Assembly (NCBI GenBank): GCA_030770425.1
Contig: JASJFT010000072.1
Location: forward strand, 1-64,000
DNA from: Darksidea phi
Lineage: Eukaryota > Ascomycota > Dothideomycetes > Pleosporales > Lentitheciaceae
DNA: 64,000 nt
Reading direction: 5' to 3'
Part shown: one piece after another, positions 6,528 to 48,316 of the stretch
Numbering within the stretch: the stretch's first letter is position 1
Layout of the letters: each line of letters starts with the position of its first letter
Program-made: the position numbers and the translations under genes
Notes under the pieces: model-generated
Databases searched by the model: none
What the model was told of the DNA's origin: nothing
The model's input: the letters and a program-made list of their open reading frames with translations, nothing else

Positions 6528-6713
6528 TATAAGGTACGTATAGGTAGATAGGTATAAAAATACTAAGGTAGTAAAAGGGTTATATTTAGATAGAGATAAG
6601 ATAAATTCTTAAGAAGACGTAATAGTAGAACGTAGAACTATATAAGATCCGGTATATAACTATAACTAGGCCGATAATAATCTAGAAGTCCTTTAGTAGA
6701 AGTAGATATAATA
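6528..6713 (-). repeat. 3' LTR of the chromovirus (left copy)
   Basis: This 186-bp copy is colinear with 14919-15104 and differs mainly by C/T and G/A transitions, as expected for RIP. The adjacent purine-rich tract on the minus strand (about 6714-6735) identifies it as the 3' LTR. The preceding pentamer is ctaat. Confidence 0.85.
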
Positions 6714-9700
6714 TAGCCTCCCCCTTTCCTAAAGGCCGTCCCGGCCCTTATAGAGAGTTATTTACTACGACGTATTCTATTAGTCTTCTTACTTTCTTTA
6801 GAAAAGTTTATCTAAGTATCTATACTCCTAAAAAACCCTATTTCTAAAGAAAAAATAATTTTATAGAGAAGACCTTTTAGGTATTTAATATCTATATTAT
6901 ATCCTACTACCTTATTAGGGGGTTTCTATAGTCCTTTTAGCCTCGTAGCCCTTAATCCTAACCTTATAATATATAGTTAGTTTAATTAAAAAGTATATAT
7001 AATTTAAGTATTAATCTATTATTAGTATACGTTTATAACTTTTATCTATTACTATTATAGCTTATAGTCTATACGTATTCTTATAAGTTCTTATACTAGT
7101 AGTAATAGCGTCGCCGCTCCTCTTATAGGCGATTTTCGATAACTTCTATCTAGTAGATACTTACTATCTTTATATAAAAGCTATTTATTAAGTATAATCT
7201 CTATAATTACTTCGCTTACTTATAATATCTTTATAAAGGCTTTAGAACTAGCCTAGACTCTATTTAATTTAGTCTTAATATCTATTATAATAATATAACC
7301 CGATAGTACTTAGTAATTATTAACTACTACCTATTATAACTTATAATTATATTAAATTACTTATTTATCTATAGCTCTTCTAGTAAGAGAAATTCCGTTT
7401 ATATCTTTATAGACATTTATCTAAGAGATAATAAATTACTATATATTATATCTCTTTAGATACCTTTATTTCTATATTTTTAAGCTCTTACTAGTAAGTA
7501 CCTAGAACGTTATTAGCTTAGATATAGAATAATCTCTCTTAGTATAAGTATAAGAAGGTATATCTATTTCTAAATTTCTCTACTTTATTCCTTAATACTC
7601 TTAAGATCCTATTTCTTATTATAATTACCTTTACTAGCTAGTATAGTAATACTATCCTTCCTAAGTATATTTATACTCTTTCTATCTATTTAGAGCCGTA
7701 GCCCTCCCTTATATATTATTAGTATATAAATTACCTTCTCTAATTTATATAGGAGTTTAATATAGCTAAGCTCTATTAGATTACTTCGAGTAACTAGTAC
7801 TAAAAGGCTAATATCTATACTACTTATAGTAGGTATAAAGCTCGTTATTAGACTTATTTAGTAGTATATACTAGTCTTCCCTTCTTCCTACTAACGTAGT
7901 TCTACTAATAATTTATATAAATTAAGTCTACTTTCTACTACTACTTTAACCTTCTTACCTTTACTATTAAGTATATCTAATATTATAACGTCTAAGCTAC
8001 TCGTAATAATAAAGATATAAATTCTAATATACTTAAGAAGATTTAGTAGGATATATAATTTTATACTTTTAATATTAATACTAGTTAGAATTAGTATAAG
8101 GCTAAGTAGAAGCGTCTAATTAAGGATACTAGTAGTAAGGTAGAATTACGTTAGGCTATAACTATAGTATATAAGCTTAACTTTTAGTACTATTAGATAT
8201 ATTCTACTATCTTTCTAATAGCTTCCCGTACTAATTCCTCTAATATAGATTAGATAGTATTAGCTATTTAGTATCTACTAACTTCGTAGCCTCTACTACC
8301 TATAAGACTTACTTTATTAAATATAACTCTTCGACTAGTACGCCTCTTAGAACTACTAATTATAAGTATTATTAGTACTATTATAGCCCTAATATTCCTA
8401 ATAGAAATATTATTAGTAGAGGTATAATATCTATTACCTCTTAGAAGAGGGTACTACGAAGCTCCTTTAGAAACTTCTTACCTAATATATATAGCTTACT
8501 TAAATCGTCTATAGACTATATAGTACTTAGTTAAGGTTCCTATTACTAGGGTATATAGATAGAATAAATATCTATATTAAAAATCTAGCTTATTAATTCT
8601 AATATTATTATTATTAGTTAGTCTATCTATTACTATAATTTATAAAGGCTAGCTTTACTAAATCCTTTAAGTCGTAGCTTATTACTAAAGTAGATAATAT
8701 CCTCTTTTTTAGCTAATTATTCCGCTTATATAGTATCCCCTAAGCGGGGTCTTAAGATTATCTTTTAGTTAAATCTCTTAGTCCTTCCTTTATATTAATA
8801 TTACTTATATAGTCTACCCCTTTAGGATTTCTTATATACGTTATTATTCCTTTATAAAGGTTACGATACTTCTTTAGTAGCTTTCTATTTTAGGTAATCT
8901 AATATTTAATTATCTAGATTCGTCTAATATTTCGTAAGAACCTTATTATAATTATTAAAAGAGGTCTTAGACTTCTATATACTATTCTTATATAATTAAT
9001 CTAGCTACTTTATAAAGAAAAGCTTCTTATTATATACTATCTTATAAGTAAAGATAGCTTTAACTTTATATTAATCGTCGTCGTTAAGCTTTAGATACTA
9101 TATAAACTTAGGTTTAAAATTTAGACCTTCTTTTAACTCTACCTATTTCTTTAGAAGAGATATATAGAAGATAGGATATAGCTAAAATATTAATAAAGGT
9201 AGCTTAAGCTAATAGCTTAGCTTTTTATACTTAGTTTAAATAGTAAAGGGTCCTAAGTACTTCGTATCTAACTTTTTTAAAGGGCGCTTAGTCTTAATAT
9301 TAGTAGCCTTTAAGATTACCTTTTTACTAATAGTAAAATACTTACTCGTTCTCTTTAAGTTATACTAATATTATTAGCTCTTCTAAGTATAGGTTAATAT
9401 ATTTTAAGTATTAGAAAATTACTATACCTAACTAGTTAGAAAGTTAATAACTCTTTAATATATACTTAAGGTCTTTCTATCTATACTCTAGTCGCCGGGT
9501 AGTTAACGAAGCTAATACTTATCTTCTATATTGTTAAAACTCTTAGATTTAATACCCGTTACGACCTTAATAAAATATATACTATAATTTAAATAAATCT
9601 TAGAGTTATACGCGTATTCTACTATTAAAAGTAGCTAATACTAGTTATCTTATTAATAGTTTAGGTATATCTATAGGTATACTTTAAGCTCCTAATTCTA

Positions 9701-12700
9701 ACGTTTAGTTTAGCTATCTATTTATAGGTAGAAGGCTATACTTATTTATTATTTAATATTAAAATAAAAATATATATCTAATTAGAATTTACTAGTAAAG
9801 ATAGAACTCTAATCTAAGATTAGTAATAATAGGGGTCTAACCTTTATAAATACTTCTATAAATAATAGGTTAACTAATATACTTATAGTAATATTCTTTA
9901 TTATAAGTAGATACTAAACTAGCTTTAAAAAGTAATTAATAAGTATTAGTATTATATTATAGACGTTACCCTTAGAATCTTTAAATTCTAATAGATTAGT
10001 AATAAAGTTTAGGGAGTAATTATACTATAGCTTCTATAATAAGAGGATTAGTTCTAGTAAGCCCTATAGCTTATACCTTTATACTTTATTTATTTAGTAT
10101 ACTATATAGTCTTATACGTACGTATTAACCTCTACTTAAAGCTTTAGCTAATAGTACTTCCTTTATAAGAGTTTAATAGTCTTATCTACTTTATAATAAC
10201 CCCCTAAGGGGTTATTATAATTTCTCGTAAAAATAGCTTAATAAAGAGCTTTATTATTAGGAATCTATACTTTCCCTATTCTTCGAAGGATACCCTTCGA
10301 ATCTATAATCTATAAAGATATATTCTTTTATTTTTTTCTACTCTTAGACTTTTATATATACTATATATTCTTATAATAGACTATATTATATTCCTATACT
10401 TTCTAAATATAGTCTAATAGTAGCCCGGAGGTTTCCTAGCTAAAGGGCGAGTTATCGTTTATAGCTTCTAGTAAAGACTTATATAATATAAAGGTAGAAA
10501 ATACTTTATAATATTAAAAGAATATTAAAGTTAGATTTAAGCCTTCTAATTATTCTTTAGGTTTATCGTCCCCGTCTATAAATAGATTAAGGTTAATAGA
10601 TAATATATCGTTAAAAACTAGTACTATACTAGGGAATCCTATAGTAGAATAGTTTACGTCGTCTTCGAATTCCTAATAGATTACTTATAAATCCTTATTA
10701 GTAAGATTAGATTTATATACTATCTAATCTTTAGTATATAGAGTTATAGGCTTCCGAAGTACCTATATTTAGAGTTTATTTTAGAGTATAAAAAGTATAA
10801 TATTTCTTAATACCCTTCTCTTTCTAAGCTAAAAGCCTTTAATATAATTAAATCGTTATAATAATATATTAGCTAGATTCTTTATACTAGGCTTATATTT
10901 AATCTTAAAATCGAAATAAGCTAACTCTTTAGCCTAATATACTTACTTAGGTAAGAGTACCTTTATAGTTATAAAATATCTTAGATTATTATAATTATAT
11001 AGTATATAAATAGTATTTAAAGTATACTTAAAATAGTATTACTACTATTTAAAGGTTTTTATAATAGCGAATAACTCTTTATTATAAGTATTCTACTAAA
11101 TCTATAGCCTAATAAACTTACGACTAAAGAATATAACTAGTTTTTAATATTTTTCTATTAAGAGTACTATTATTTATAACTATAATAGAATAGCTACTAT
11201 AATAAACTTAAAGGCGTTAGTAATAACTATTATAAGTTTTATTAAGTTAAAGTACTAAAGAATAGAGGCTCTTATAAAGAGTTTATAGAGTATAAGAAAT
11301 ATATTATATATATCCTTTAGCTAAAATTAAGAGACGTACTACTTTATAAAATCCTTTTTAATTTTCTTTAACTTTTCTATTAACGTATTCTTACTAGAAT
11401 CTTATTAGACTAGTATTAGATTCTACGTAGAGGTTATATATTCTAAAAGTAGATAAATAATATCTAAGTAGTTATATATAAATTATTAGTAAAAGTTTAT
11501 AAATTTAAGAAATACTTAAATATCCTAATAGCCCTTAGGCTTTAACTACTCTTTAATTATTTAGACCTATATTAGGTTTATAACTACCTCGTAAGGGGTT
11601 ACTATAAAGCTAAGAAACTCTACTAACTTTATAGAAAAGGTATACTTTAAGACTTTATAATAAAATCTCTAATTATATAATCTCTTAAGAACTTTACGAA
11701 TATATTATTTATAATCCTCCTCCTTCTTAGAGTATATAAGGATATTATCTAAATAAATAATATATATTTTATCTAATAGGCTACCTAAGGCCTTATAGAT
11801 ATACGACTAAAACGTAGTAAACGCGTTTATAAGACTAAATAGTATTATTAGATATTTAAAATAGCTATAGTATATTTTAAATATTATCTTCTACTTATCG
11901 CCCTTCTTAATATATAATTAATAATATACCTTATAGAGATTAAGTTTTATAAAGACCTTAGTTCTAGATAACTAATCTAATATCTCGCTTATAAGAGATA
12001 TAGAATAACGATTTTTAATTATTATCTTATTTAAACCCCTATAATTAATATATAATTAAAGTATATTATTAGCTTTAGATATAAAAAGTATTAGGACCTC
12101 TATTAAGAACTTATTAGGCTAAATCTACCCCTTTTTTAAAGAGTTATTAAGGTATTTCCTTAAGATTTTAAATTCTCTTCTAAAGAGATTATAAATAGGT
12201 AGATTTAATAATATCTTTTCCTTTTTAAGATTAATAATATAGTTATACTCTAAGTTAAAAGTAATTCTACTAGTAAGCTTAGAACTAAAGTACTAAAGTT
12301 AATTATAAAGATATTCTAGTATTTTTATAGCTTCCTTAGAGTCGATTTTTTTATTAGAATTATTATAAAAGGTATTTAGATAGTTCTTAAACTTCTATTA
12401 CCCCTTTTAATAAAGAGCTACGACCCTTTATAAAGGGATATTTATTATTAATACTATAACCTAAGAGATTATAGTCTTAGATAGCTATACTAATTTAGGG
12501 TATTACTTTATATAGTAGATAAGATAATTATAAAGTTATAGGACCTAATTTTTTAACTAAAGTAGACCTTACTTATTTTAATATTAAGTATTCTAAGGCT
12601 TATTATCCTCTAGGGTTCGTATTTTACTAATAGATATCTATAGATATTCTATAACCTTTACTATATTAAGAAATTAAAGTTAATACTCTTTTTTACTTAT

Positions 12701-14918
12701 AAGCGATTAAGTATAAAAGCTCTCTAGATATAGTATATATACTTTCTCCCTAGGTTATAGTTATTATATTAAGTTATTAAATATTATCTTAACTTTAATA
12801 TACTTAACTACTATACTTCTATTCTACTACTTAAAAGATTCCTTTTAATAATCTACTCGAAGGTCTATCTTGTATAGTTATAGCTAGTTAAGAATAAGAT
12901 TATAGCTATTTATAGGAGTAGTCTAAAATATCTAAAGATCTATTATTCTTATTATATTCTAAGAATTCTATATTATTATCGTAATAACGTATAGCTTTTC
13001 TAAATATAGTAGTATACTAAAGACTTAATATATTTATAACTTTATATATAATAATATCTTAAAGAGGTTCTATTATAGTATAAGGTCCTCCCTAATAATA
13101 TTTAAGTCTAATTTTATATTAAAAAGGCCCTAAGCCTATATTAGAACGTCTATAGGAAGGTATATTCTTATATTATTAATAATCTATAAAGATTTACTAT
13201 TAGTATTTAGTCCTAGTAGTATTATAGTAATATTAGTAACTAAGACTTATCTTTTTTTAAGAACGAATTAGCTTTCTCTTTATAAGTTTTATTTAACCTA
13301 TTATTACCTTTAGGGTAATACTTTTAATAGTTCTTCTTCTAGTTAGTCTTAGATTAGGATATTAATATTACGCTCTCGAAGCGTAATAGAGTTCTTAATA
13401 AAGACTATTTAGTATTATCCTACTAAGAGGGCTTCTAATCCTATTTCTTTTAGCTAAAATTACTTAAAGCTATTAAAGATATAATATACTTTCTACTTAT
13501 AATTAAATTAGGACTAGAAACCTTTAGAAGAGTAGCTAGTATAAAGATAGAGTATACTACTATCTCTATATCTTATAAAACGTATTTAAATTATAACTAA
13601 GTTCGTACGTTTTTAAGCTAGCCGCCCCTTTATATTTTATAATATAAAGGTTTTAGATACTTACTTTATACTATAGATATCTTTAATATATTAGGACTTA
13701 TATTACTACTAAAAGGCTTTACCTTTAGGATAACTTTATAAGTCGTAAAATAATTAAAAAAGAAGTTAAAGCTATCGTTCTAACGTTATTTAATATTCTA
13801 AAACTTAAAGTAGTTATTAAATTTTATTAGAATAGGGTTCTTTATAAGACTCTTAAGCTTTATCTATAACTAGGGCTATATAATAACTTTACTATTATTA
13901 ATAGCTTAAACTAGTAAGTTATAATATATATTATTCTTAATAAATATTATAATCTATATAGTACGTTTAAGGGTATTAGTAGTAGTAAAGTTAATTTAGA
14001 AGAGACTATTAATATCTCTAATTTAATAGTTTATAGCTTAGATTATTAGAATTTTCTTTAATAAGTCTAGTATAGGAGGATTCCTAATCTTAATTAGGTT
14101 AGATAGCCCCTAACGAGTATCGTCTACTAAGAGTAGGCTAATTATAGTCTAAAGGGTTACTATAGCTAGTTTAAAGGCTACTTAGACTATAATAAGATCT
14201 ATTCGTATAACCTTAATCTAGTTAACTAGTACGTCTTAGTATTAAAGATTAAGTAATATTTATACTACCTTAACTAAGAGTACTTTACCTAAGGCTAAAG
14301 TATAGATAGGTATAATATAGGCTATACCTAGGTAATTATTATCTATTAGGGTATTATTAGCTCCTAATATAGGTAGTATAGTAGGAGTTAAGGGTTAATA
14401 TAGTTAGAACTTACTTATATAAACCGTATTTTTATAGCTAGGTATTCTATTATTTTCTTATATAGATTAGTAATCCCTATTAATTATAGCTATTATTAAG
14501 GTTCTACTAAAAAATAGTAGTTTATTAAATACCTCTAAGGTATTTCCGTTATTATATTATATATAGATTATAGGGGTTTTAAAGACGTATTAACCCTCTT
14601 AAATATTTTTAGGATTAAATAGGTCCCCTAGCTAGTAATTATTCTTATCGTTTAATTCTAATTTCTAAACTTATTATCTACTAAACTTAAGACGCTACTA
14701 GTATACTTTATTAACTAGCTATATATTAGGATTATTTCGTCTACTAGATAAATAGATATTAAAGCGAGTACTCTTTTTCGAGTAGGTAGTATAAAAAGGT
14801 ATACTAATAGCTTTAAATAAACGTTATATAGTATAATTAATAAGAACTTTTAAAGTATTAACTTTTAGTATCGACGTCGTACTACTAGTTCTTAAAAAGG
14901 AGTAGAAAGGATTCGAAT

Positions 14919-15104
14919 TATAAGGTATATATAGATAGGTAGATATAGAAATACTAAGATAGTAAAAGGGTTATATTTAGATAGAGATAAGATAAATCCT
15001 TAAGAAGACGTAATAGTAGGACGTAGGACTATATAGGGTCCGGTACGTAACTATAGCCGGGCCGATAATAATCTAAGAGTCCTCCAGTAGAAGTAGGCGT
15101 AATA
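14919..15104 (-). repeat. 5' LTR of the chromovirus (right copy)
   Basis: This 186-bp copy is colinear with 6528-6713 and slightly less mutated (it keeps more G/C). On the minus strand the sequence just inside the element begins ATTCGAATCC, which resembles a tRNA T-arm and may be part of the primer-binding region. The following pentamer is ctagt. Confidence 0.85.
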
Positions 15105-15817
15105 CTAGTATTAGTTTATAATACTATTATTACTTACCCTAATTACTTCGTCCGATATACTATTATATTATTCTAAGTCTATATATATTTATTTATAGTA
15201 TCTAGTATTTATTATATCTAGGTATTATTAATTAAGTCTTAAGGTTATAGTAAAACTTCTAATTCCGTCGTCTCTTTTATCTAACTCTTCTCTTTACTCT
15301 AGTCTAATAGACTATTAGAAGCCCTATAGACGTCGCTAAAACTATAGTATATAGGTATATTAGAGATAGAGTAGTAGAGCTTATAACCCGTAGTTAAAAG
15401 AATAGAAGAGAAGGGTTAATAGAATAGACGGCTAAATAATTAATTAATTAAACTATTTCTTCTATCTACTATATATTAGGATGGATAATAAACTCTAGCT
15501 AAAGATACTCCTAGATAATAACCCTTCGGAGCCTAGTCTAATATTTCGCCGCTTACCTAAGCCTTTAACGCTCGATCGGAAGGCTCCCTTTACTACTATA
15601 CTATAATAGTAAAAGTATTAGCTCTCTATATATTAATTAATATTAACGACGAGGATAATAAGTTATTATTATTTAAGAGTAATTAGTTATAATCTAGGCT
15701 TATAACTATTATAGTAATTTTAGTATAAATTACTATAGTACGTAGTTTCTAAAAGTAAAAGCTCTAATTTCTATAAGTTAAAAAAGACGGTATTTTATAT
15801 ATAGAAACGACCCCTAA
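15105..15817. other. RIP-type AT-rich flank, no gene
   Basis: This continues the AT-rich, CpA/TpG-depleted composition without a readable domain. It ends abruptly at about 15.82 kb, where normal dinucleotide use resumes (CTGTACCTTAACACCAATAC). It is probably the edge of another destroyed repeat. I see no coding region here. Confidence 0.6.
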
Positions 15818-15840
15818 CTGTACCTTAACACCAATACTAC

Positions 15841-15867
15841 TGGACTCTGTTGGACTCTGTTGGATCA
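15841..15867. repeat. Tandem direct repeat at the AT/GC boundary
   Basis: The ten-base unit TGGACTCTGT occurs twice in a row followed by a partial third TGGA. It sits a few bases inside the GC-normal side of the isochore border, so it may mark an insertion or rearrangement junction. Confidence 0.6.
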
Positions 15868-15959
15868 CGAGATTCAGCAAATAGCCGTTAGTACTAGGCT
15901 AATCCTTGCGCCTAGCGAAATCTCTGATCGCGCTTAGTCCCTGAGCCGTCTGCTCCGCG

Positions 15960-16345
15960 ACACCTTTACTACACCACCAAGACGCTGAGTGACCAAACAG
16001 ACGTCAGTTGTAAGTCTGGACCACGTGCAGCTTCTGAGTCCATTCAAATACTGACCAAGTACAGACCACGCGGCAAACACATACCTGTGGACAGTGATTG
16101 AGGCATCCGTCGGTCTCATGTGCGCGTGCTTCCCCATCATCGGTCCGCTCTTCAAGACGCTACGGACAAAGGCGATGTCCAAAGGAGGTTCAGGGGTCAG
16201 CTCGCGACAGCAAGACTCTTCCGGAACCGGCACAATCGGCAGCAAGACTATAAGAAGCAAGAAGAACTTCCAGGAACTACCAGACGAAGAACTGACCATC
16301 TTGAACAAAAGTCAAAGACCAAGGTCCGGAGATGATCATATCTGA
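15960..16345 (+). pseudogene. 3' remnant of a Pth11-like/fungal rhodopsin-fold membrane protein gene
   Basis: The plus strand reads LYYTTKTLSDQTDVS at about 15.97-16.01 kb. After a probable small intron it reads YLWTVIEASVGLMCACFPII followed by GPLFKTLRTKAMS and a polar tail, ending at a stop at 16345. This matches the last two membrane segments and cytoplasmic tail of fungal Pth11-like (Rhodopsin_fung) proteins, in which a W-x-x-(I/V)-E segment precedes a C-x-C-x-P-x-x-x-P-L-F block. Everything upstream is missing: the GC-normal sequence begins only about 140 bases earlier, at the border of the RIP-mutated block. The gene therefore appears truncated by repeat insertion or rearrangement. An intact relative lies at 23076-24467. 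The function of this fragment is presumably lost. Confidence 0.6.
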
Positions 16346-34089: not shown

Positions 34090-34830
34090 TCGCCATGGAC
34101 ACTACTCCTTTCGACATGCTCTTGCAAAGGCTAAGACTCTCTAGCCAGTAGAGGTATTGCTGTCTTAGAAAGCTGTCGACAGCGCCTCCATCCTCGATAT
34201 GATCTTCTCAGAAAGAGTGGCCTGGAATTGAATGTAAGTAAAGCTCTCGCCAAAGACAATACTACTTACCGCAGGAAAGATACACTTTCGCTACTTGTTC
34301 ATTCTCGCCAGGAACGCAAATTGTAAAGCCAGTTCCATAACACTTAATAGCTCCAGAAATTCGCGCATGTGCACTGTTGTTGCAGTACAATTCATCAACC
34401 AAGGTCTGAGGTAAGCTCGTTATAGCCAATCTCTCCAAGTATTCGACAGCCACTCTAGCTAAGTACTTCGCGGAACTGATTTCCGAAATCATTGGTTTAA
34501 TAAGGCATGGACCGCAATAGAGCTATTAGAGTTAATGTACGGGCTAAATACGTGGCCTGCAGTGTACATGTACTTACACATTTGCAAAATGGGAGGAAAT
34601 ATGCAACGTCTGCAGAGTCAAACGCCTGAGAGCATCCAGCGCATCGAACAGGGGCTAGTCCTATAGACATGAATAAACACTAGGCTCGCATAATGAAATG
34701 ATACGATCGTACCGTTGCGCCTTCTCTTCCTCGGGGGTGTCGACTCACTGATCGAATAGTTCTCAAGATCAATAACATCATCTATTCCTGAGGGTGATTT
34801 TGTAGAGCTCTTGTGACAGTCAGCAAGAGC
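34090..34830 (-). pseudogene. Cluster of gene fragments (RING-like and NLR/WD-linker-like)
   Basis: On the minus strand an exon at about 34.1-34.2 kb reads FLRQQYLYWLESLSLCKSMS, resembling the conserved H/Y-W-L-E-(A/S)-L-S-L linker after NACHT domains of fungal NLRs. Upstream exons at about 34.26-34.5 and 34.57-34.65 kb read CAGCSQAFDSADVAYFLPF, then CKC, then YCGPCL, which look like a degenerate RING-type zinc finger. Plausible GT-AG sites link the pieces, but no complete architecture emerges. It could be a real gene of unknown family with several exons. I prefer mixed debris because the neighbouring CorA piece is broken. Confidence 0.3.
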
Positions 34831-35164
34831 ATCAGCGCAGTTCTTATAGACGTCCAGCGTGTTTGGTCAAGTGCAACGGTAAAAACAATCTCAATCCCCA
34901 TAGGCGCGCTTCCACTCTAAATCTAAGACTAGAACCTTCGCGTAACAGCCGGTTGGCCGTCGGGAATACGATATCGACACTGAGGCAGCACTTTTCCGGG
35001 CCCATTGACGCCATGAATACCTCGCCAAACCCAGCCCTGCTGATCCCCATAGGTCCCAGACGGGCTTGTATGTCCGGGCGGGGCCTGTGCGCGGCGCGGA
35101 GGCGGCAGCGATAGTTAGCAACGGTCGGACGCGCATTGTGGATGGCGGGGCTGAATGTCATATC

Positions 35165-35464
35165 TTATTGCCGTCCAGCGGTATCCGGTGGGAGGCTTGG
35201 TTTCATATGCACAAGCTCGGCTGCGCCGGGTTGGCGCGGTTGGCCCATACTCGATATCAACTCCACAGAAAGTTGAGCCAATTGGACTGTTGCATCTACT
35301 GCGACCTGGGTCTGATTAGGGAAGAGTTTAAATATATCCTTCCATTCCATATCCATACCGTTCCTGTATGCGAGTAACCGCAGGTCGTCCGACCTCAACC
35401 ACGGTACACAAGTTCGTTGCCGGAAGCGCACATCCCCTCCGTTGAACCCCGGACCAAGACCCAT
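35165..35464 (-). CDS. Possible Myb/SANT-like DNA-binding protein
   Basis: The minus strand encodes PWLRSDDLRLLAYRNGMDME followed by WKDIFKLFPNQT, matching the fungal Myb/SANT-like spacing of W...D..L..(Y/L)R..G..W.DI...FP.RT. The frame extends upstream without ATG into an acidic stretch (DDDGDEEEDKEEDE), so an upstream exon may exist; the ATG at 35464 is the first in frame. The product would be about 99 residues with a C-terminal Pro-rich end. It lies directly beside the repeat-peptide gene (same strand, about 0.7 kb upstream of nothing else), so it could be a local regulator. That is inference. Confidence 0.4.
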   Translation of the reverse strand: MGLGPGFNGGDVRFRQRTCVPWLRSDDLRLLAYRNGMDMEWKDIFKLFPNQTQVAVDATVQLAQLSVELISSMGQPRQPGAAELVHMKPSLPPDTAGRQ

Positions 35465-35822
35465 ATCATGAGGCTTATATTCGGTTGTGCCTTCATCTTC
35501 CTCCTTGTCCTCCTCTTCATCCCCATCATCGTCGGGCTGAAGAAGAGAGACGAACCCAAGCACGAGCGGGCCTTAACTGAGGCGAAGCTGGCTACGACAA
35601 TGCGAGGGTTTGATCTGTGGACCGTCATTGGACACGCATAGGCTTCTATCTCTTTAGAACATCAAACCTAAAATTCATTCGTACTAATCTCAGAAAACCC
35701 GTTTACTATGTCCTTCGCCAATATATCACCAGTTAGAGTCACCCGCGTGTTGTTTCATGATTTCTTGCAAGACACCGCGCTGCCCATGCCTCCCATCTAA
35801 CACTATGCCAAGGCACTCTTAT

Positions 35823-36933
35823 CTAGGAAGAAGACTCATTCTCGGTCTCTGCATCGGCCTCAGCACGAAGCTACAATTCATTAGTTGTCTGCTGGCTCTA
35901 TGGTACGGAACGTAACTCACAATGTAGATAGAGTTGAAGCCAGCCTCAGCATCGGGAATAGAAGTGCCCTGGAATGTCGTTTTAGAAAAGTGTAATTGAC
36001 TCTACAAAGCATCAGATCCATACGTACGCGCTTCTAATTTGTAGCCTCGGTCTCAGCCTCCGTATCGGCTTCAGCACGGAGCTTCAAAAGTCAATTTCGT
36101 TTCAAAACAAGATATATAGCATCAGCTTACGATATAAAGGTTGCTAAAACCGGCATCCGCATCAGGAATAGACGTACCCTAGAAATCACTTAGGTTAGTG
36201 TGTTAGAAAACGTAAGGAAAGTTGACATACGCGCTTCTCACCAGCGGCCTTCGCTTCCTGCTCTGTGTCGGCTTCGGCACGAAGCTTCGGCAAGTCAGTG
36301 TCGTTGGTAGTTAAGTTAATACTGAGCAATTTACAATATAAAGGTTGCTAAAACCAGCATCCGCATTAGGAATAGACGTGCCCTAGAAATCACTTAGGTT
36401 AGTGTCTTAGAAAAGGTAAGGAAAGTGGACATACGCGCTTCTCACCAGCGGCCTTCGCTTCCTGCTCTGTGTCGGCTTCGGCACGAAGCTTCGGCAAGTC
36501 AGTGTCGTTGGCAGTTAAGTCAATACTAAGCAATTTACAATATAAAGGTTGCTAAAACCAGCATCCGCGTCCGAAATAGACGTTCCCTAAAAGTCCAGTC
36601 AGCGCTAACACCCCGCAGCCGCGTACTTTATGGTGGTTTACCCTCTTCTCGAGCATAGTGGCAACGTATTCGTCGCTGAATAACTGTATCAGGTCAGCTT
36701 CATATCTCTGCAGGGTTGGCATAACAGCCACTCACAAGGTACTTCGTGCCCTTAGATTCCGCAACCTGCAGGCCAGGTAGCTGAACAACTTGGGCCAAAA
36801 CATCATCGGGAACTACGACAGTGGTCATTGTGGGCATTTCGTCTGGCGCAAAGCGGGCATTCTTTGCCGTGGGCGCGGCGGTGGTAGCACCAAAGAAGAT
36901 GAGAGTTGGAAGAATGGTGGTGGAGAACCTCAT
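35823..36933 (-). CDS. Secreted Kex2-site repeat peptide; candidate dikaritin-type RiPP precursor
   Basis: Ten small exons, all in phase 0: 36933-36736, 36683-36642, 36586-36539, 36488-36435, 36382-36335, 36284-36231, 36178-36131, 36081-36028, 35968-35921 and 35870-35823, with introns of 49-59 nt. Exon 1 gives a signal peptide (MRFSTTILPTLIFFGATTAA) and leader. Exon 2 ends ATMLEKR, a Kex2 site. Then 48-nt 'core' exons alternate with 54-nt 'linker' exons. Cores are GTSISDADAGFSNLYI, GTSIPNADAGFSNLYI, GTSIPDADAGFSNLYI and GTSIPDAEAGFNSIYI. Linkers are LRAEADTEQEAKAAGEKR (twice), an acidic variant with an in-frame TAG at 36034-36036, and a terminal one. The TAG ends the predicted product at about 179 residues, after core 3. 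Repeated peptide plus acidic spacer plus KR is the design of ustiloxin/phomopsin/epichloecyclin precursors. The UstYa-like enzyme 2.2 kb away supports this. The mature peptide is unknown. Confidence 0.85.
36034..36036 (-). other. In-frame TAG stop inside linker exon 3 of the repeat-peptide gene
   Basis: The linker exon 36081-36028 reads in frame to ...EATN, stop, then K-R just before its donor site. The other complete linkers have a sense codon at this place. A single C-to-T transition would explain it. It removes the Kex2 site before core 4 and all downstream sequence. Confidence 0.8.
36179..36586 (-). repeat. Two tandem 204-bp units (intron-linker-intron-core)
   Basis: 36179-36382 and 36383-36586 are the same length and nearly identical, including both introns. 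They duplicate one whole core-linker cassette. The flanking units (core 3/linker 3 and core 4/terminal linker) are diverged members of the same series with slightly different intron lengths. Confidence 0.9.
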
Positions 36934-37060
36934 CTTGTAGTAAGTACTCGTTAAGGATGGGTTGACTATGGGCTCTTTGGGAAGAGTGCTGGAAATGCAG
37001 TAAAGATGGCGAATGCGTAGAAGGGTGAGCTGATGATCATTCGAGGGAGGATACAGGACT

Positions 37061-37069
37061 CTTTATATA
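37061..37069 (-). promoter_or_regulatory. TATA box of the repeat-peptide gene
   Basis: The minus strand shows GTATATAAAG about 130 bases upstream of the ATG at 36933, consistent with the chosen start and a strong fungal promoter. Confidence 0.55.
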
Positions 37070-37079
37070 CTCTTTCTCT

Positions 37080-38540
37080 GAATTTTCATCACCAAGCTTT
37101 AAAAGAACGACCCTTCAACGACGAACTCCGCTAGAGCGATGCTGTTCGTGATTCCCCCTCCGACCATCCTCAAACCCATGTCACCACCGTAGCCCCTCAT
37201 GAAGACTTTTTTCCTATCTGTTCATAGTGCCTGACGTGGGGGAACTCTACACCGCCCTTTGCACTCTGCCCAGGTGTTCCCCAGCTGAATCATTAACTCA
37301 AGATAGCTAAGAATCATTATATCCATCTTAGCCTAAAAGGCATGCAGGAGCTCAGGGTAAGAACATTACGCAGACAACCAAAATCACATACTCCAAGCGT
37401 CATCCTGATGATAAAGGATCTTTTAGTTGCATAGACTAAAATGATCCACTCCACCCTCCCGGTTTTTCACCTTTCGGAGGAATTGACCGGTGCGAATAGT
37501 TTTCACCTTCCGTTATTAGTACCATGTACACATATCTTGGCCAAGCATATTTTGAATCCTATTCAGACCCAGAACGTAGTCGATCGATTATCAGCACCCG
37601 ATATAAGGCCGATACTGCAGCTCTACCGTACCGCCCACCTTTGCCTAGAAGAAACGTCCCGCTTTATTAACTCAGTATTGTCTTAGGTCTCCACTTGAAC
37701 TAACTCAAAATGGAGCGTGCTACATCTTGTTCCTTGCTCGGAAGTAAAAACACCATTAGTTCGGATGTCTCCATAGTGAGATTCGGATTGAACGGGTCTG
37801 TGCTGCGGCCTTATAGATATTCGACGCATTCCTATGAGAGTAGAGCATATGCCCAATCAGTACATGATCACCCCCTGTACTCTGGCATCGACTTAAAGTC
37901 ACGCCATATGCGATCCTTCCGCAGGTGTTCTGTGCAGATCCCTGTATTATCTCTTTACGATTGTAAAGCTCACTCGAGCGTCGTGCAGCCACAGCCGAAC
38001 ATCGCTACTCCGCAATATCATGGATTGGCCCAATCCTCCGAGAAATGCGACGTGATGCTGCTGATGAAAATACAGGATTACAGTTAGGATTTCACGTCTT
38101 GGGGTTCATGCGCGTCTACGGAAAGCACTTATTGTATCCAGAAGACTATAGAATTCGAAGAGCCACAAAGCACCTCGCGTAGAAGGTTACCCGAGGAATC
38201 TGACTGCATACGATCAGCAGCTCTAGCCTCTCGTGCGGGGTAATCTGACACGACCAAAGAGATAATCCTCCCTAGGTACGGAGTAGACAATAGCAGATTT
38301 GGTGGTAAAAGAAAATTTGGCTTCAAGATGGAATAGGCAGGTAGACCAGATTGTTCAAGTGTGGCTCGTGATTTCAAATCGATGGCCCTCACCCGAGCTA
38401 GGATGTTTCTTGTAATCGGCAAATGGTGCTTACAGGGTACCAAAAGTATGCAGTGCCAGGATATACGCTATAGGTTAGTTGTCCGTCCCTATGGTTCAGA
38501 CAGACTAAGCGCAACGGGCAAATAACCGACTGGAAGGAGT
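37080..38540. other. Intergenic between divergent peptide and UstYa-like genes
   Basis: About 1.5 kb without a supported gene. Frames of up to 125 codons at 37.4-38.4 kb lack motifs, signal peptides or splice structure. With the tandem repeats at 38.55-38.80 kb, this is the shared upstream region of the peptide gene (minus) and the UstYa-like gene (plus). Confidence 0.45.
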
Positions 38541-38551
38541 GTCGCTGCATT

Positions 38552-38803
38552 GCTTAGTTTCCTATAGGGGTATTGCGTCAACCTTCGGTAAGCCATTTCT
38601 ATAACTATTATGGGTTTAGCTTTATGCTGTATCGCTTAGTTTCCTGTAGGAAGCTCGGTATTGCGTCAACCTTCGGTAAGCCATTCTTATAACTATTATG
38701 GGTTTAGCTTCATGCTACCAGCTTAGTTTCCTATAGGAATCGGTGTTGCGTCAACCTTCGGTAAGCCATTCGTATAACTATTATGGGTTTAGCTTCATGC
38801 TGC
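38552..38803. repeat. Three tandem 82-87 bp repeats
   Basis: Units begin at 38552, 38634 and 38721 with GCTTAGTTTCCT. Each contains TTGCGTCAACCTTCGGTAAG and ends TATGGGTTTAGCTT. Differences are small indels after the first 16 bases. They lie about 340-590 bases upstream of the UstYa-like start codon, so they might be regulatory, or simply a minisatellite. Confidence 0.9.
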
Positions 38804-39142
38804 ATTGAATCCACTCTATGACCTTATCGGATGCACAAGTGTTTAGCCGGAGAAAATGAGTCTCCTTCTCTCTACGTGGTTAATGGGCCTATCTGGCAAC
38901 CTTGCAAGAGTAACAACTCCATGCAGTACCGGATGCGACCAAGAGTTGTGTGATTGCACGACCGGGGTTCTTTTGGAGACCAGTGCGTATCGAAACGCAA
39001 TTTAGCCTCGCATTGATTAACAATCAAGCGATAAGAGAATGATGGTGCAATTGGGTTTCAGTAGCAGGATCGTTATATTGCGCACACCTCCCATACACGA
39101 CGCTTTGTGGTGCACTTCCAGCTTCTTGAGTCTTCTCCAGCT

Positions 39143-40360
39143 ATGGACAAAGATAGTGGCGAATCCATGACCTCTGACGCGGACTCTTACTCCGATCAAG
39201 GGGAAAGTCTCCTTCGAAAGGGATATACATACACGCCCGTATGGTTCAACAGGCTTCGACAGAAGCCATCACTTACGGTGTGGCAATTGCTACCTCTTTA
39301 CATCCTCAACACTGTTATTCTTCTCATCATTGTCACCCACTACGGCGGAGAGACTTCACAAAATAATGATCCTTTACTCGACCTTTACTGTGAGTTCAAC
39401 CAATCTCAACCGAGCTATAGCCTGGCATAAAGATTGCTAACATTCGCAGCTCCCGCGAACGAAGCAGTCAGATATCGCGATGTTACATTTACTGCGGCTT
39501 TTGGTACAGATATCAGTCCTTACCAAGGATGGCCTGATGACCACAAGGACGAGATATGGGAGGACTTGTACAAATGTAAGCCATTGAAAGCAGTCCACTT
39601 CCTCATAGTCGTAGCTGCTGCACGCTTCGAGCTTAGTGCTCGTGAAAGTGAACTGACTGCTAGCAGTTGGCATGTCGCTTCATGTCCCTGCCGAACAGGC
39701 ATCCAAACTGGAGCGGGGAACCGAGAACTTTGCCGGAGCATTGGGATACGAGAATGAGTTCCAAATTGGGATCGGTAAGCGCTGCCATACAACAGGGAAT
39801 CCGCAAGTTAATAATATACTCCACTAGATGTTTTCCACCAACTTCACTGCCTGGTATGGCTAAACTTAGTTTCAGCCGAAAATCACTAACTGACATAACT
39901 AGAACATGATTCGGAAAGCTTTTTACCCAGAACGCTATCCAAAAGCGGCTGTCTATGACTCTGACGGCAAAGTTTCCTATCCAAACTGGATCCACATCGG
40001 TATGTCACCTCCCCACCACTGATAGCAACTCCACTCACTCATTTAGATCACTGCATCGAATCGATCCGCCAATCGCTCACCTGCTCTGTCGACATCTCCG
40101 TGATGACGTATACTTGGCAAGAAGAGCACAAATTCATGAAGCCGAACCTTGACATCCAACACAAGTGCCGCGATTTTGATGCCATTCGCACCTGGGCGTT
40201 TTCTAAGCATCCACCCGGTAATTATAGCAACAGAGCACACGTTGAGGCGAACGGTAAGATCAGAGATTGGAATGACTGGGGAGACCCGCTAGAGGGTGTA
40301 GATTTGAACAAGCTAGGGTTAGGCAAAATTCCAGAAGAGTTAAGGATGGAGGTCCTGTAA
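39143..40360 (+). CDS. UstYa-family (DUF3328) oxidase
   Basis: Six exons (39143-39389, 39450-39575, 39667-39774, 39828-39853, 39903-39999, 40047-40360) join exactly to 305 residues. After a polar, acidic N-terminus comes one membrane helix (LLPLYILNTVILLIIVTHYG). The lumenal domain has both HXXHC motifs of the family: HQLHC, in the 26-nt exon 4, and HIDHC, whose first codons span the exon 5/6 junction. A conserved RQSLTCSVDIS, an acidic W-QEE stretch and the HKCRDFDAIRTWA block follow. UstYa-like proteins catalyse oxidative macrocyclisation or side-chain crosslinking of ribosomal peptides (ustiloxin, phomopsin, asperipin, cyclochlorotine pathways) on the secretory route. Divergent placement 2.2 kb from the Kex2-repeat peptide gene makes that its likely substrate (inference). 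The gene looks intact. Confidence 0.93.
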
Positions 40361-41374: not shown

Positions 41375-43830
41375 CTATCTGGGGAATTCGGCAATCGATG
41401 ACTGACGACTCTGTAGCCAAAAAGTTCTGGCTTCATCCCAGCTGTTGATGACAATCTTCTGCAGCGGTATTTCCGGATCCGCAAGATAATCCGAAATGAG
41501 TGAGCCCTTCAATCTCAATGAAGGCAAGTGAATCGGAGATGACGAATCTTCCTTATTCTCCTTCGACTTTTCGTAGGTATACCGACAGGTGCTGCATGGC
41601 CGGACCAGCAAATATCTGCTATAATCCGAATTCGGAGTCTGGAGCAGAGAAGAGAGTTGGGGTGCGTTTAGCCGTAGGAGAGGCTCAGGATCTAACATGA
41701 AGAATGCAAGATCGGCAAGCAGTGACCCTGCAAAAAGATAATCCATTCGCGCTGGGGTGCCTTGTGCATCGGGTGGGGTTTCCGAGACGCTCACATCGAA
41801 TGATCGCGGGGTTGAAGTGTCCTGAGAGAGCGTAGTGTTGGATAGTTCCGTTTGGAGACCCTCTGCGTAGCTTAGAGACCATAAATAAAGTAACCAATGG
41901 ACAATGGAAATAGCTGAGGAACAGTACGCTCTTGATTCCGTGCTCCTGTGTGGCCGATTCTCGATGAGATGGGCTCTCCCTCCCGGAGGGCAGATTAAGA
42001 CGGGGGCAAGTTCCAAGAAAACGCAACCCAAAGAGAAGATGTCAGCCGGTCTACCACGCCTTACCGAATCTCGGACGCATTCAGGAGCGCAATATCTAAG
42101 AGTAACAGGTCCAACGGAACCACTAGTCCCAGAAGATTCCTCGTTGCTCATATCCTTCGCAAACCCGAAATCTGTGAGATAGACCTTTCCGTCCTTGATA
42201 AGAATGTTCGATGGCTTGATATCCGTGTGCCTTATTAATTCCTGGTGCAGATAGTTCATAGCTTGAATGAGACACCCGCACCATCCCGGGATGTGCTCGA
42301 GCAAAGCAATCCTTCCAGGACCATCAGCAGCATCGATCTGGTCGAGGAGGGCCGATAGATCGGATTGGGCAATAGGCAACATGATTATGCCAAAGTGTTG
42401 TCGCCATTGATAAGTTTCGATGACTCTGACTATATGCCAGTGTTGGAGTCGATTGGCAATCCTAGCTTCCTCTTTAATCTTTTCTATTTGCTTTTCTCGT
42501 TTTGGGAAGACTGTGTGTAATCGAAACAACTTCCGCGCAAAGACGGCGCGATTCTGTAACCGGGCTTCAACTTGGTCTACAAAGCCATACGACCCTGTTC
42601 CTAAAAGTGCCTTTGATATAAATGGATCTTCTTTCTCGGCGTTGTAGTCGTGGTGTATAAGGGATGCATCTGCCGTGGTGGGGAAAATCTCATTCAAGGG
42701 AATTCTCCAAGTAGAGTTGAAATGTGACATTAGCAACCACATGAACTCTTCGGCTACGTGGCCGAATCCACTGGCTTTGACACACAATTCGACAGTGTGA
42801 ATTTTCATATAATCAATTCGTGTCAGGCGATCCAGCCGCCAGCGTGCGTCGTCCGGCACAATCTTGATGGGATCAAGCATGCCCACCTCGCCCACTCTTG
42901 GCTTTTCTTGTTCCGCGGGCTCCGGAGGACTTTGACCAGTGAATGCCATGGAATGATGGGACTTCACTTTGTTGGAAGGCACCCCGCGACGTCCGTACGT
43001 TAGAAGTGGCCTTTCTCACAGTCAGTGTTCCGGCTACGATCAAGGTTAGGAGGTGCTTACAAGCATGTACAACAATCATATCCCATTCGAAGCACTACAA
43101 ACCTTCGAATTTTGATCTCAAACCTTTTCTCGGGCAGAAAAATAGAGGTCACAATCGTGGGCGAATCATTTATGTCACCGGCGGGCTCAGGCCATAAAAC
43201 TTCGAACACTTTTCCGACTTTGAAGAAGTCAAGTTCTTGTTCTCCGAACGATGGGTCCAGTTTTTCGTATGCTTCCGGACTCGCTCCAAGCCTCCTGTGT
43301 GCGGTTATCACCGTTGGGCGTGACTCTCGGTTTGATACGCCCAACGTTTCCGTACCGCTTCCAAGTGGATTCTTCGTGATTGCGTACCCTATTGCTGTTG
43401 GATCTTGAGTGTAAGTCTCGTCTTGCCGCACATCGGGTAACGCGAGGATCTTATGGGTTGTGGCAATGGGCGGCGAGGGATCTGATTTCCAAGTAAGTAA
43501 TGGCATGAATCGGTCGTTTGATCACTCACTAGGTTTGCTATGTGTCTGTGGATGGCCTCCATTTGCATCGATATCGTCTACCTTGCTTTGTTTATTGAGT
43601 AGCTCTTCTTCGTGGAGCGATTTGCTGGAGAGCGACTTCAGAAATTCCTTGCCGACTGTCGTGCCGTGCTGGCCAATTTCGAGTTGCGGAGAATCGCATT
43701 GGATGGGAATCTCGCGTCTCGGTGTGATTTTAACACCGGACTGAGAAAAGTGACATTGTTGTGGTTCGCACCAGTGGTACCACTCTCCTATTGAAGCATC
43801 CCACAACCATTGCGGCATTGGTGGGGGCAT
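41375..43830 (-). CDS. DUF6590-protein kinase fusion
   Basis: Three exons (43830-43530, 43481-43061, 43010-41375) give 785 residues with frame kept at both junctions. The N-terminus has a Trp-rich segment (PQWLWDASIGEWYHW). Residues about 160-370 form a DUF6590 domain: FFKVGKVFEVLWPEPAG, RRFVVLR, then after the second intron LPLLTYGRRGV and IKIVPDDARWRLDRLTRI. The C-terminal kinase domain shows the G-loop LGTGSYGFV, VFARKLF with the likely ATP Lys, HTDIKPSN in the catalytic loop, DFG in LTDFGFAKD, CAPE and ADIFSLGCVF. HTD replaces the usual HRD, so the Arg that senses activation-loop phosphorylation is absent, but Asp, Lys and Asn remain. Cytosolic. A similar kinase lies 1.4 kb upstream. The function is unknown; the family is common in accessory fungal genomes. 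Confidence 0.85.
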
Positions 43831-45186: not shown

Positions 45187-46680
45187 CTACATACCGGCTG
45201 TTCTCGGATACATTCGCCGTAGCAATTTACTATATCGCGGGTCCTGGAATAAGTGGGCAAACTGGGGCCCTTTATCATCATAGTCTCCGCCTCCATCACC
45301 ATAATCTCCATCATAGTCTCCGCCTTCATCGCCTTCATATCCATCGCCTCCGCCCTCACCTCCATCACCATCGCCTCCGCCATACCCTCCCTCATGGTCT
45401 CCGCCTTCATCGCCTTCATATCCATCACCTCCGCCCTCACCTCCATCACCATCGCCTCCGCCATCACCATACTCTCCCTCATGGACTCCATATATATCGC
45501 CTTCATATCCATCGCCTCCGCCATCACCATACTCTCCCTCAGGGCCTCCGCCGCCTCCGCCATCATCAGGGCCTCCACCGCCTCCGCCATCATCAGGGCC
45601 TCCGCCTCCATGGCCTCCTCTGCCTCCATGGCCTCCTCCGCCTCCATTGTTGATGGTAGCTCCACATTCGATTGCCAGGTGCACCATTACGTTATGGCGT
45701 TTCCTAGAAGCTACCTCGAGCAACTCGTTGATTCCATTGACATTGTGACGCTCCGCCTCATCCGGAAATGCAGTGCATTCACAATCAGTCGGTGGCACGG
45801 GCCTAAAAGGCTTGTAGGACCAGCAAAGTTGCAAATCATCAATCTCCGGTCGCAGTTCTGGCTCTCTTTCCGTCATCCTTCGGCAAAGGAATAGGATTGC
45901 GGCGTTCCAAGGAATACCGTGAGGGGATTTCAGCAGGCGTGTTATTACTGCATCACGATGACGGGAATATTCGAAACCCTGCTCTTTCTTGATATTCCAA
46001 AGGTCGTAACCAGAATACACAATGAGCATATCCAGGAACACCGCTCCCAGAGAGAAAATATCTGCTGCTCGACCTTTCCGAACAACGAAAGTAGTTCCAT
46101 CAACCTCTCTCAATTCCGGGGCTCTGTAAGGCAGCGTTCCACGGGTAGCAGTGAGCGAATTACTAGTAATTCCTTCTTGGATTATTGCGATGCCAAAGTC
46201 GGCTAAGCGAACATGATCCTTTTTAATTAGGATGTTATGTGGTTTTATATCCCTATGGCGAATGTCTACACCGTGAAGATAAGCTAATCCGCTTATCAGG
46301 CATCCGAACCAGGGTAGAATTTGCTTTCGGAGTTCACCGTCGGAGGCTTGATGGAGGTAATCGTTGAGGTCCATATCTGCAACATCCATAATAATCCCAA
46401 ACTGTCGTGGAGATGCATAGGTGCAGATTATGGAAACGGTGTGTAAATGTCGAGCCAGATGAAGTGTACGAGCCTCCTTCCGTGCCTGCTTTATTTTGTT
46501 TTGCCGCTCCGTTGGGTTGTATGGGAGATTGAATTTTTTGGCGGCATAGAGATGCCCAGAGGTACGTTCTCGGACCTCAAATACTGAGGCATAGCCACCG
46601 CTCCCGAGTTCTCGTGTGAAATCAAGGGGGATCTGGCTGTTATCGGTGTAATCACGATGTTCGTACGACTCGCTTTCCAT
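45187..46680 (-). CDS. Serine/threonine protein kinase with Gly/Asp-rich tail
   Basis: A single-exon 497-residue protein. The kinase domain (residues about 17-290) has the G-loop LGSGGYASVFEV, YAAKKF with the ATP Lys, HRDIKPHN, ADFGIA, YRAPE and AADIFSLGAVFLD, so all catalytic residues are present. After the domain, at about residues 300-340, it has NGINELLEVASRKRHNVMVH then LAIECGA, reminiscent of one ankyrin-like turn. The last 150 residues are a low-complexity Gly/Asp/Glu repeat (GGGDGYEGDEGGD-type units) ending in FQDPRYSKLLRRMYP. Its kinase domain resembles the DUF6590-linked kinase at 41.4-43.8 kb, suggesting a local pair. It is cytosolic or nuclear. The tail length is probably variable between strains because the DNA is a minisatellite. 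Confidence 0.88.
   Translation of the reverse strand: MESESYEHRDYTDNSQIPLDFTRELGSGGYASVFEVRERTSGHLYAAKKFNLPYNPTERQNKIKQARKEARTLHLARHLHTVSIICTYASPRQFGIIMDVADMDLNDYLHQASDGELRKQILPWFGCLISGLAYLHGVDIRHRDIKPHNILIKKDHVRLADFGIAIIQEGITSNSLTATRGTLPYRAPELREVDGTTFVVRKGRAADIFSLGAVFLDMLIVYSGYDLWNIKKEQGFEYSRHRDAVITRLLKSPHGIPWNAAILFLCRRMTEREPELRPEIDDLQLCWSYKPFRPVPPTDCECTAFPDEAERHNVNGINELLEVASRKRHNVMVHLAIECGATINNGGGGGHGGRGGHGGGGPDDGGGGGGPDDGGGGGGPEGEYGDGGGDGYEGDIYGVHEGEYGDGGGDGDGGEGGGDGYEGDEGGDHEGGYGGGDGDGGEGGGDGYEGDEGGDYDGDYGDGGGDYDDKGPQFAHLFQDPRYSKLLRRMYPRTAGM
45285..45655. repeat. Coding minisatellite (Gly/Asp/Glu-rich tail of the kinase)
   Basis: Imperfect repeats of cctccgcc-, ccatcacc- and ccttcatatcc-type hexamer/nonamer units run for about 370 bases. 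The longest duplicated stretch is seen at about 45.33-45.38 and 45.40-45.46 kb. On the plus strand this creates an artefactual hydrophobic Ile/Ala/Ser frame. Confidence 0.8.
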
Positions 46681-48316
46681 AATAGAACCTTACTGGGGGG
46701 CCTCGCGTTAGAAGTCCTTACGACATTATTCTTGTAGGCAATATAGCTGGAGAAGGACCAGTAGGGACGGGAGAGCGCTAACTTACGTCAAGTCTCAGGA
46801 AATCAATAGCGGTGCTCCACGAAACAGTCCTGGCGAACTGGATGGAATGACAATAAAGCCTGGTGGTCGAAAGGCGGGGTCAGGCTGTCTTTTGGGCAGA
46901 CGTCGATTATCGAGCGCACAGGCCATAGAGACCTTTAACCAATTGCATGAGCCATAACGCACTGCCCCCACAACAGCAAGGGGCTGAAATGCGCGGCCTC
47001 TCAGTTAATATAACCATGCCATGAACGGATTGGCCCAGGGAGCCACCGCACAGACGAATTTGTATGGAAACGTACCGACGAGCGAGTTAAACCGTTTATT
47101 GGTTTGGAGCGGGCACCTTACTCCATTAGAGTACATGAAAATGCACTTCGCGCGAACTGGGAGGGCGACGGCCCGCACATTTCAGCCCCTTGCCTAACTT
47201 ATCGGCCGGATTTACCACAGTAAGCGAGTTCAGCCGCTTCCCAAAGGTCCTATCAAGCGGGGGGTTAGGACCTTGGCTATACTGGGCATAGCTTGTGGCG
47301 TTCCCATATCAGCTGGAGTGGCATTTATCCGGTTGTAGGTCGTAGTATCTGCATCAAAGTAGCCAACCACTAGCGAACCTCAACCTGAGACCAAGGGCAA
47401 GGTTGACTTACCAACCTGGACTGTCGGGATGGGGCTGCCTCATTAGTTGATATACATGCACGTCGAGCCGCAATAGGTAAGGGCCTGTTCGGTACAGAGC
47501 TTCAGTTTACCGTCAGATTGACCTCAGAAGGAGCTGGTGGCGTACAGGGGGTTGGGTTAGTGTTTGCGCTAGATTTATTAGTCACTGACGAGTTATCTGA
47601 AATCCTGTTCGGTAGGCCCAGAACGCCAACTTTCAGATACATATATAGCGAAAATCAAACCTCCTACTAACCTGATGTTACCCACCGATCGGCGCGCTAT
47701 TTCTATAACTGATATAACGCCTATTACTAATAAGCGGCTTGTTGAAAGAGGTAAGTACTGCTATAACGCTGCCTATTAACCCGGTAAGGGCAGCAGCTGT
47801 AGAGGAGTCGATTCGGGGTATACCAGGGACTTAATACTATACTAAGACTAGTAAGAATTGACGACAGAGATAACGACGGCTGGCTCTAACGGTTAGGGCT
47901 AGAGCCGAGTCAAAGTTGACGGGCTTACGGTACCTCTCGACTACTAGAAAACTTCTAGAGGCTCTAGATCGCTTAATAAGGTTAAATATAGGTTATATAA
48001 GTACTAGTAGGGGTTTTAAATTACCTTATTTTATATTGAATGTAACACCTCCAGAAGCCCGTACCGAACACGCCCTAATTTGTTCAGCGTATCCCCTAGT
48101 TCTAACCCAAATCCGACCATCAGGAAATCGCGTAAATTCGGTTAATCATTCCATGGACGTATAGTTAGCCACATTGGGCTCGATTAGTTGCTGACGGGGC
48201 AACTCCGTGGAGATAGCCATAGCTAGAGTTGAAGGTCTCGACACCCAAGAATGCACCGGTGAGCGTTCAGTGGTTGCGGAAGCTCGGTGTTGCCAAATAA
48301 TAATATACGTTAATTG
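46681..48316. other. Intergenic, 1.6 kb, partly RIP-like
   Basis: No gene is supported. At about 47.64-48.03 kb the composition becomes TpA-rich with tracts such as gcctattactaataagcggc, suggesting a mildly RIP-affected repeat fragment. The remainder is unremarkable. Confidence 0.45.

What the first reader, a model, noticed from the sequence alone, without database searches (positions are those of the whole stretch)
35823..36933. Unannotated repeat-peptide gene that looks like a dikaritin-type RiPP precursor
Seen: signal peptide and leader, a Kex2 KR site, then 16-residue units (consensus GTSIPDADAGFSNLYI) alternating with acidic linkers ending EKR. Each lies on its own phase-0 exon with canonical 49-59 nt introns. 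No single frame is longer than 77 codons, so ORF callers miss it. Known: ustiloxin, phomopsin, asperipin and epichloecyclin precursors are secreted, Kex2-cleaved repeat proteins. Inference: the conserved single Tyr (and Phe) in GF(S/N)(N/S)(L/I)YI marks the modified core. I do not recognise this core among the described families.
Basis: partly seen in the sequence, partly recalled or inferred. Interest (0 to 1): 0.95.

Follow-up and report, generated by a model that had tools for sequence, protein, structure and literature searches.

The report
Fungal repeat-peptide gene beside cyclase UstYa
A fungal gene that encodes several near-identical short peptides, each on its own tiny exon, sits next to a UstYa-type peptide-modifying enzyme gene, so it most likely makes a new cyclic peptide of a known kind.

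Summary
The gene is real. On the minus strand (36933 to 36034) it encodes a 179-aa repeat protein: signal-peptide-like start, leader, then three GTSI..ADAGFSNLYI cores alternating with acidic linkers, with Kex2 KR sites, each piece on its own phase-0 exon. The one relative found is a Byssothecium circinans protein, 60% identical over its whole length, also with three cores. An in-frame TAG (36036-36034) ends the protein after core 3, so core 4 lies behind a stop. And an intact UstYa (DUF3328, PF11807) oxidase gene with both HxxHC motifs lies 2.2 kb away, divergently transcribed. Its best full-length relative (73%) is also in Byssothecium, on a contig of the same length as the precursor's. Kex2-flanked repeats beside a DUF3328 gene are the genomic signature of dikaritins; no tyrosinase was found on the contig. 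I read it as a minimal precursor plus UstYa pair making a Tyr-crosslinked peptide. The core is new, the kind is known; the one-exon-per-core layout is the unusual part. Cyclisation, expression and splicing are untested.

The parts
36736..36933 (-). exon 1: signal-peptide-like start and first part of leader (MRFSTT...GTKYL)
   Evidence: aligned to P0001
36642..36683 (-). exon 2: end of leader, LFSDEYVATMLEKR, first Kex2 site
   Evidence: aligned to P0001
36539..36586 (-). exon 3: core 1 GTSISDADAGFSNLYI
36435..36488 (-). exon 4: linker 1 LRAEADTEQEAKAAGEKR
36335..36382 (-). exon 5: core 2 GTSIPNADAGFSNLYI
36231..36284 (-). exon 6: linker 2 LRAEADTEQEAKAAGEKR
36131..36178 (-). exon 7: core 3 GTSIPDADAGFSNLYI
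36028..36081 (-). exon 8: linker 3 LRAEADTEAETEATN, then in-frame TAG (36036-36034), then KR codons
35921..35968 (-). core 4 exon GTSIPDAEAGFNSIYI, behind the stop
   Evidence: mostly synonymous differences from cores 1-3
35823..35870 (-). linker 4 exon LRAEADAETENESSS and its own stop, behind the first stop
39143..40360 (+). UstYa (DUF3328, PF11807) oxidase gene, 305 aa, exons 39143-39389, 39450-39575, 39667-39774, 39828-39853, 39903-39999, 40047-40360; motifs HQLHC and HIDHC
   Evidence: 73% identical to P0002 over 304 columns with one gap

Best explanation
A minimal dikaritin-type (ust-RiPS) locus: a Kex2-processed repeat protein and one UstYa oxidase, transcribed head to head. The precursor enters the secretory pathway (signal-peptide-like start, judged by eye). 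Kex2 cuts after each KR, giving GTSI..ADAGFSNLYILRAEAD... fragments of 31-34 residues, and a Kex1-type carboxypeptidase removes the KR (inferred from the known class). The neighbouring UstYa, membrane-anchored by one hydrophobic stretch (by eye), oxidises the fragment and most likely forms a Tyr side-chain crosslink in the conserved GF(S/N)(S/N)(L/I)YI segment (inferred). Proteases outside the locus trim the acidic follower (inferred). Array size changes by duplication of a whole 204-nt intron-containing module (shown by the 95% identical copies). As assembled, the protein has three cores. The TAG in linker 3 is either the normal end (about 0.5), a fairly recent truncation of a four-unit gene (about 0.35), or is bypassed in some transcripts (about 0.15).
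For: Repeat and exon structure. One full-length relative with three cores and the same leader, junction and linker plan. Intact UstYa 2.2 kb away. The Byssothecium genes P0001 and P0002 are both reported on a contig of 773,647 bases, so almost certainly one contig. No other Pfam domain at E up to 0.01 in the six frames of 34300-39140. Four of 20 other UstYa regions of this genome also hold a repeat array, one of them weak, all divergently transcribed from UstYa. Between unit 4 and units 1-3 synonymous change exceeds non-synonymous (cores: pS 0.70-0.96, pN 0.14-0.16; short sequences, no significance test). Class knowledge: DUF3328 genes accompany 1,758 of 7,878 Kex2 repeat protein genes and asperipin-2a has just one (PMC7329392 section 7; PMC6514808 passages).
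Against: No transcript, peptide or product evidence. Only one relative of the precursor is known. Co-location in Byssothecium is inferred from equal contig length, not read from DNA. No tyrosinase match on this contig, although ustiloxin and phomopsin need one. UstYa proteins also serve non-RiPP pathways (PMC12048977 section 22). The conserved stretch runs on from the core into LRAEAD, so the 16-residue exon need not equal the mature core. Core 4 behind a stop is not explained.
Confidence: 0.8

Rival explanations
1. A Kex2-processed repeat protein whose peptides stay linear (signalling, hyphal surface or pheromone-like), with the UstYa neighbour unrelated or used for another pathway.
For: Most Kex2-processed repeat proteins have no DUF3328 neighbour (6,120 of 7,878; PMC7329392). 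The genome has UstYa matches on 22 contigs including this one, so chance neighbours are possible.
Against: UstYa is only 2.2 kb away, and both genes have close relatives in Byssothecium on contigs of equal length. Pheromone-type repeat proteins almost never (three exceptions) have a DUF3328 neighbour (PMC7329392 abstract).
Confidence: 0.13
2. A decaying gene: the in-frame TAG marks loss of function, and the array is a relic.
For: Stop in linker 3 with an otherwise clean core 4 behind it.
Against: The three units before the stop are intact, with little non-synonymous change. The Byssothecium protein likewise has three units and ends ..VSN. UstYa is intact.
Confidence: 0.05
3. A secreted non-RiPP effector or inhibitor: UniRef names the Byssothecium relative an Inhibitor I9 domain protein.
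For: The name given by UniRef.
Against: No I9 match at E up to 1 and nothing over a curated Pfam cut-off for either protein. No I9 chain in the sequence search of the PDB. The I9 search of the whole genome hit three other contigs, not this one.
Confidence: 0.02

Closest known systems
Asperipin-2a (aprA precursor with single DUF3328 oxidase AprY, Aspergillus flavus)
   Same: Repeat precursor, one UstYa-type gene, no tyrosinase among the four cluster genes named (PMC6514808 passages).
   Different: Core FYYTGY versus GFSNLYI; the asperipin cluster also has a transporter and an isoflavone reductase gene, while no Pfam domain was found in 34300-39140 here.
Ustiloxin / phomopsin (dikaritins)
   Same: Repeat precursor with KR sites and UstYa family; Tyr-Ile crosslink chemistry, and the core here has Tyr next to Ile.
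   Different: Cores YAIG/YVIG and YVIP (PMC7329392 section 3); these need a tyrosinase, none found on this contig.
Epichloecyclins (GigA, Epichloe)
   Same: Repeat precursor, likely Kex2-processed, with an internal Tyr in the core (PMC9233826 passages).
   Different: Cyclic nonapeptides; GigA was not compared by sequence here.
Other UstYa-linked repeat arrays in the same genome (L024, L027, L035, L040)
   Same: Repeat array divergently transcribed from a UstYa gene.
   Different: Cores look unrelated (by eye); arrays uninterrupted in three of four, one intron inside the array in L027.

Membership tests
Kex2-processed repeat proteins (KEPs) | signal peptide | tested here: inconclusive
   MRFSTTILPTLIFFGATTAAP reads as one by eye; no predictor was run
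Kex2-processed repeat proteins (KEPs) | at least three tandem repeats of 8 or more residues between dibasic sites (Umemura's rule) | tested here: met
   three cores, each preceded by KR; the third unit runs to the stop rather than to a further KR
Dikaritins / ust-RiPS | DUF3328 (UstYa) gene beside the precursor | tested here: met
   close relatives of both genes in Byssothecium on contigs of equal length
Dikaritins / ust-RiPS | intact HxxHC motifs in the UstYa protein | tested here: met
   HQLHC and HIDHC in the spliced protein
Dikaritins / ust-RiPS | oxidative side-chain cyclisation of the core | not testable with these tools
   needs LC-MS and gene deletions
Ustiloxin/phomopsin subgroup | tyrosinase gene in the cluster | tested here: not met
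   none of the 27 tyrosinase matches listed lies on contig C448
Inhibitor I9 proteins | I9 domain | tested here: not met
   no I9 match at E up to 1; fold not tested

The most novel reading that the evidence does not exclude
A peptide precursor built as interchangeable phase-0 exons (one core exon, one linker exon per unit) that uses exon gain, loss and skipping to vary its peptide set. Core 4, kept clean behind a stop, would reach the protein only in transcripts that skip the stop-bearing linker exon. That would be splicing-controlled RiPP diversification.
Probability: 0.1. Interest if true: 0.75.

Novelty: new member of a known kind. Interest (0 to 1): 0.45.

Why it matters
It adds a conserved precursor plus UstYa pair with a core that I found in no paper of the library, and a very small locus (two genes) in which the chemistry of a single UstYa enzyme could be worked out. 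Its exon layout is a practical warning: repeat precursors cut into 48- and 54-nt exons may be lost by gene finders and by repeat searches run on predicted proteins, so counts of fungal RiPP precursors may be low (inference).

Tried and rejected
Considered and set aside: linear repeat peptide or pheromone, decaying gene, I9 inhibitor (see rivals). A second copy of the gene in the genome: none found. Wider relatives by a two-sequence profile: only P0001 again (in only the 8,000 candidates sharing most words were scored). Tyrosinase or other tailoring enzyme beside the gene: no Pfam match in 34300-39140; P450 pieces (19.6-20.0 and 28.5-29.1 kb), SDR (25.2-25.9 kb) and a FAD_binding_4 oxidase (29.9-31.1 kb) lie about 5-16 kb away, but nothing ties them to the pair. 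A mechanical search for UstYa gene models printed none; the model was then built by hand and checked against P0002. Repeat hits in L025 and L037 were not counted as precursor arrays, because their spacing or composition looked like simple DNA repeats (by eye). L040 is a weak case: dibasic sites are seen at only some repeat boundaries. Papers: of PMC7329392 the outline, sections 3, 7 and 13, part 1 of 2 of section 6, and a passage search; passages only of PMC6339444, PMC9769878, PMC9233826, PMC6374014 and PMC6514808; outline and section 22 of PMC12048977; the rest as search listings; no supplementary files. For one exon per core, searches (listings) and passage searches turned up no report; the original papers on ustA, phomA and gigA were not seen.

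Full report
What is there. The window is the first 64 kb of contig C448 of a 51.35-Mb, 477-contig assembly. On the minus strand, from ATG 36933, eight phase-0 exons encode a 179-aa protein: signal-peptide-like start, leader ending ..VATMLEKR, three 16-residue cores (GTSISDADAGFSNLYI, GTSIPNADAGFSNLYI, GTSIPDADAGFSNLYI) and acidic linkers beginning LRAEAD. Introns are 49-59 nt, GT..AG. Two 204-nt copies, 95% identical with their introns, hold linker 1 plus core 2 and linker 2 plus core 3, so the array grew by duplication of a whole two-exon module. Introns sit at the same places in all four units, which suggests that the module was already split when the array formed (inference).

Linker 3 has an in-frame TAG at 36036-36034 just before its KR codons. 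Core 4 (35968-35921) and linker 4 (35870-35823) follow with GT..AG introns. For a natural end: the Byssothecium relative also has three units and ends ..VSN, as the window protein ends ..ATN, and of the five other arrays looked at (Byssothecium, L024, L027, L035, L040) four end in Asn before the stop. For a recent truncation: core 4 differs from cores 1-3 mostly at synonymous sites (pS 0.70-0.96, pN 0.14-0.16; 16 codons, no significance test), so it was probably translated long after it diverged, and its GFNS is shared with cores 2 and 3 of Byssothecium rather than with window cores 1-3. In L027 a further repeat unit also follows the stop. A sequencing error cannot be ruled out. I leave the point open.

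Relatives. A search of 5.8 billion proteins (8,000 candidates scored) gave one hit, P0001, Byssothecium circinans (Pleosporales, Massarinaceae), 171 aa, 60% identity over the full length, E 4.5e-54. A profile of the two found nothing more. Only one copy was found in the own genome.

The neighbour. At 39143-40360 on the plus strand lies a six-exon gene for a 305-aa UstYa protein with one hydrophobic stretch (by eye) and both HxxHC motifs. Of 151 relatives (120 listed) the best is P0002 of Byssothecium, 73% identical over the full length; the next named fungus, Lophiotrema, has 49% over 76%; a short metagenome protein, P0008, has 76% over 41% and is probably a piece of a close relative. P0001 and P0002 are each reported on a contig of 773,647 bases, so they are very probably on one contig. 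In 34300-39140, six frames, no Pfam domain reached E 0.01. None of 27 tyrosinase matches listed for the genome is on this contig.

Comparison inside the genome. PF11807 matches lie on 22 contigs including C448 (lower bound). I fetched regions on 20 of the other 21 (L031 was cut to 5.4 kb by the contig end; C456 was not fetched). Four of 20 hold a repeat array (L024, L027, L035, and more weakly L040), with cores that look unrelated, and in all four the array lies head to head with UstYa, as in the window. Three arrays are uninterrupted and one has a single intron inside (by eye), so the fully split layout of the window gene is unusual here, though the sample is small.

How it most likely works. 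Secretion, Kex2 cleavage after KR, trimming of KR, oxidation by the adjacent UstYa at the conserved Tyr (perhaps to the Ile or Leu beside it, or involving the Phe), then removal of the acidic follower. Only the anatomy, the conservation and the gene pair are shown; the chemistry is inferred from ustiloxin, asperipin and phomopsin (PMC6514808 passages, PMC7329392 sections). UstYa proteins also act outside RiPP pathways (PMC12048977 section 22).

Novelty. By genomic signature this is a dikaritin-type precursor; its core strings occur in no paper of the library, though supplementary tables were not open. Umemura (PMC7329392) found 7,878 Kex2 repeat proteins in 838 types plus 2,560 stand-alone ones, 1,758 of the 7,878 with DUF3328 neighbours, so a new core is a new member of a known kind. 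What seems uncommon is the exon layout, and possibly the unit behind the stop.

Noticed in passing
L027 (G000:C59:50600-60500), about 7000-7700: UstYa-linked array with cores like KGLGALFGANKR; after a stop (..FGAN) a further similar unit follows and ends ..FFGN then stop, like the window gene.
   Followed up: partly
L024, L035, L040: Three more repeat arrays near UstYa genes, cores around LNSRFAKYQ, VVGNLWHAKDD and DADDLINNVW (the last weak), head to head with UstYa.
   Followed up: partly
window array, P0001, L027, L035, L040: Five of six arrays (all but L024) end in Asn right before the stop codon; reason unknown.
   Followed up: no
window 38552-38802: Minisatellite of 85-nt period, 2.9 copies, in the space between the two divergent genes.
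   Followed up: no
window 1-16000: Very AT-rich start of the contig (GC 0.19-0.29 in 2-kb steps, against 0.45-0.55 further on), possibly repeat-induced mutation or a centromere or telomere flank.
   Followed up: no
window 41378-43015 and 45190-46689, minus: Two protein kinase frames, the first with a DUF6590 part.
   Followed up: no
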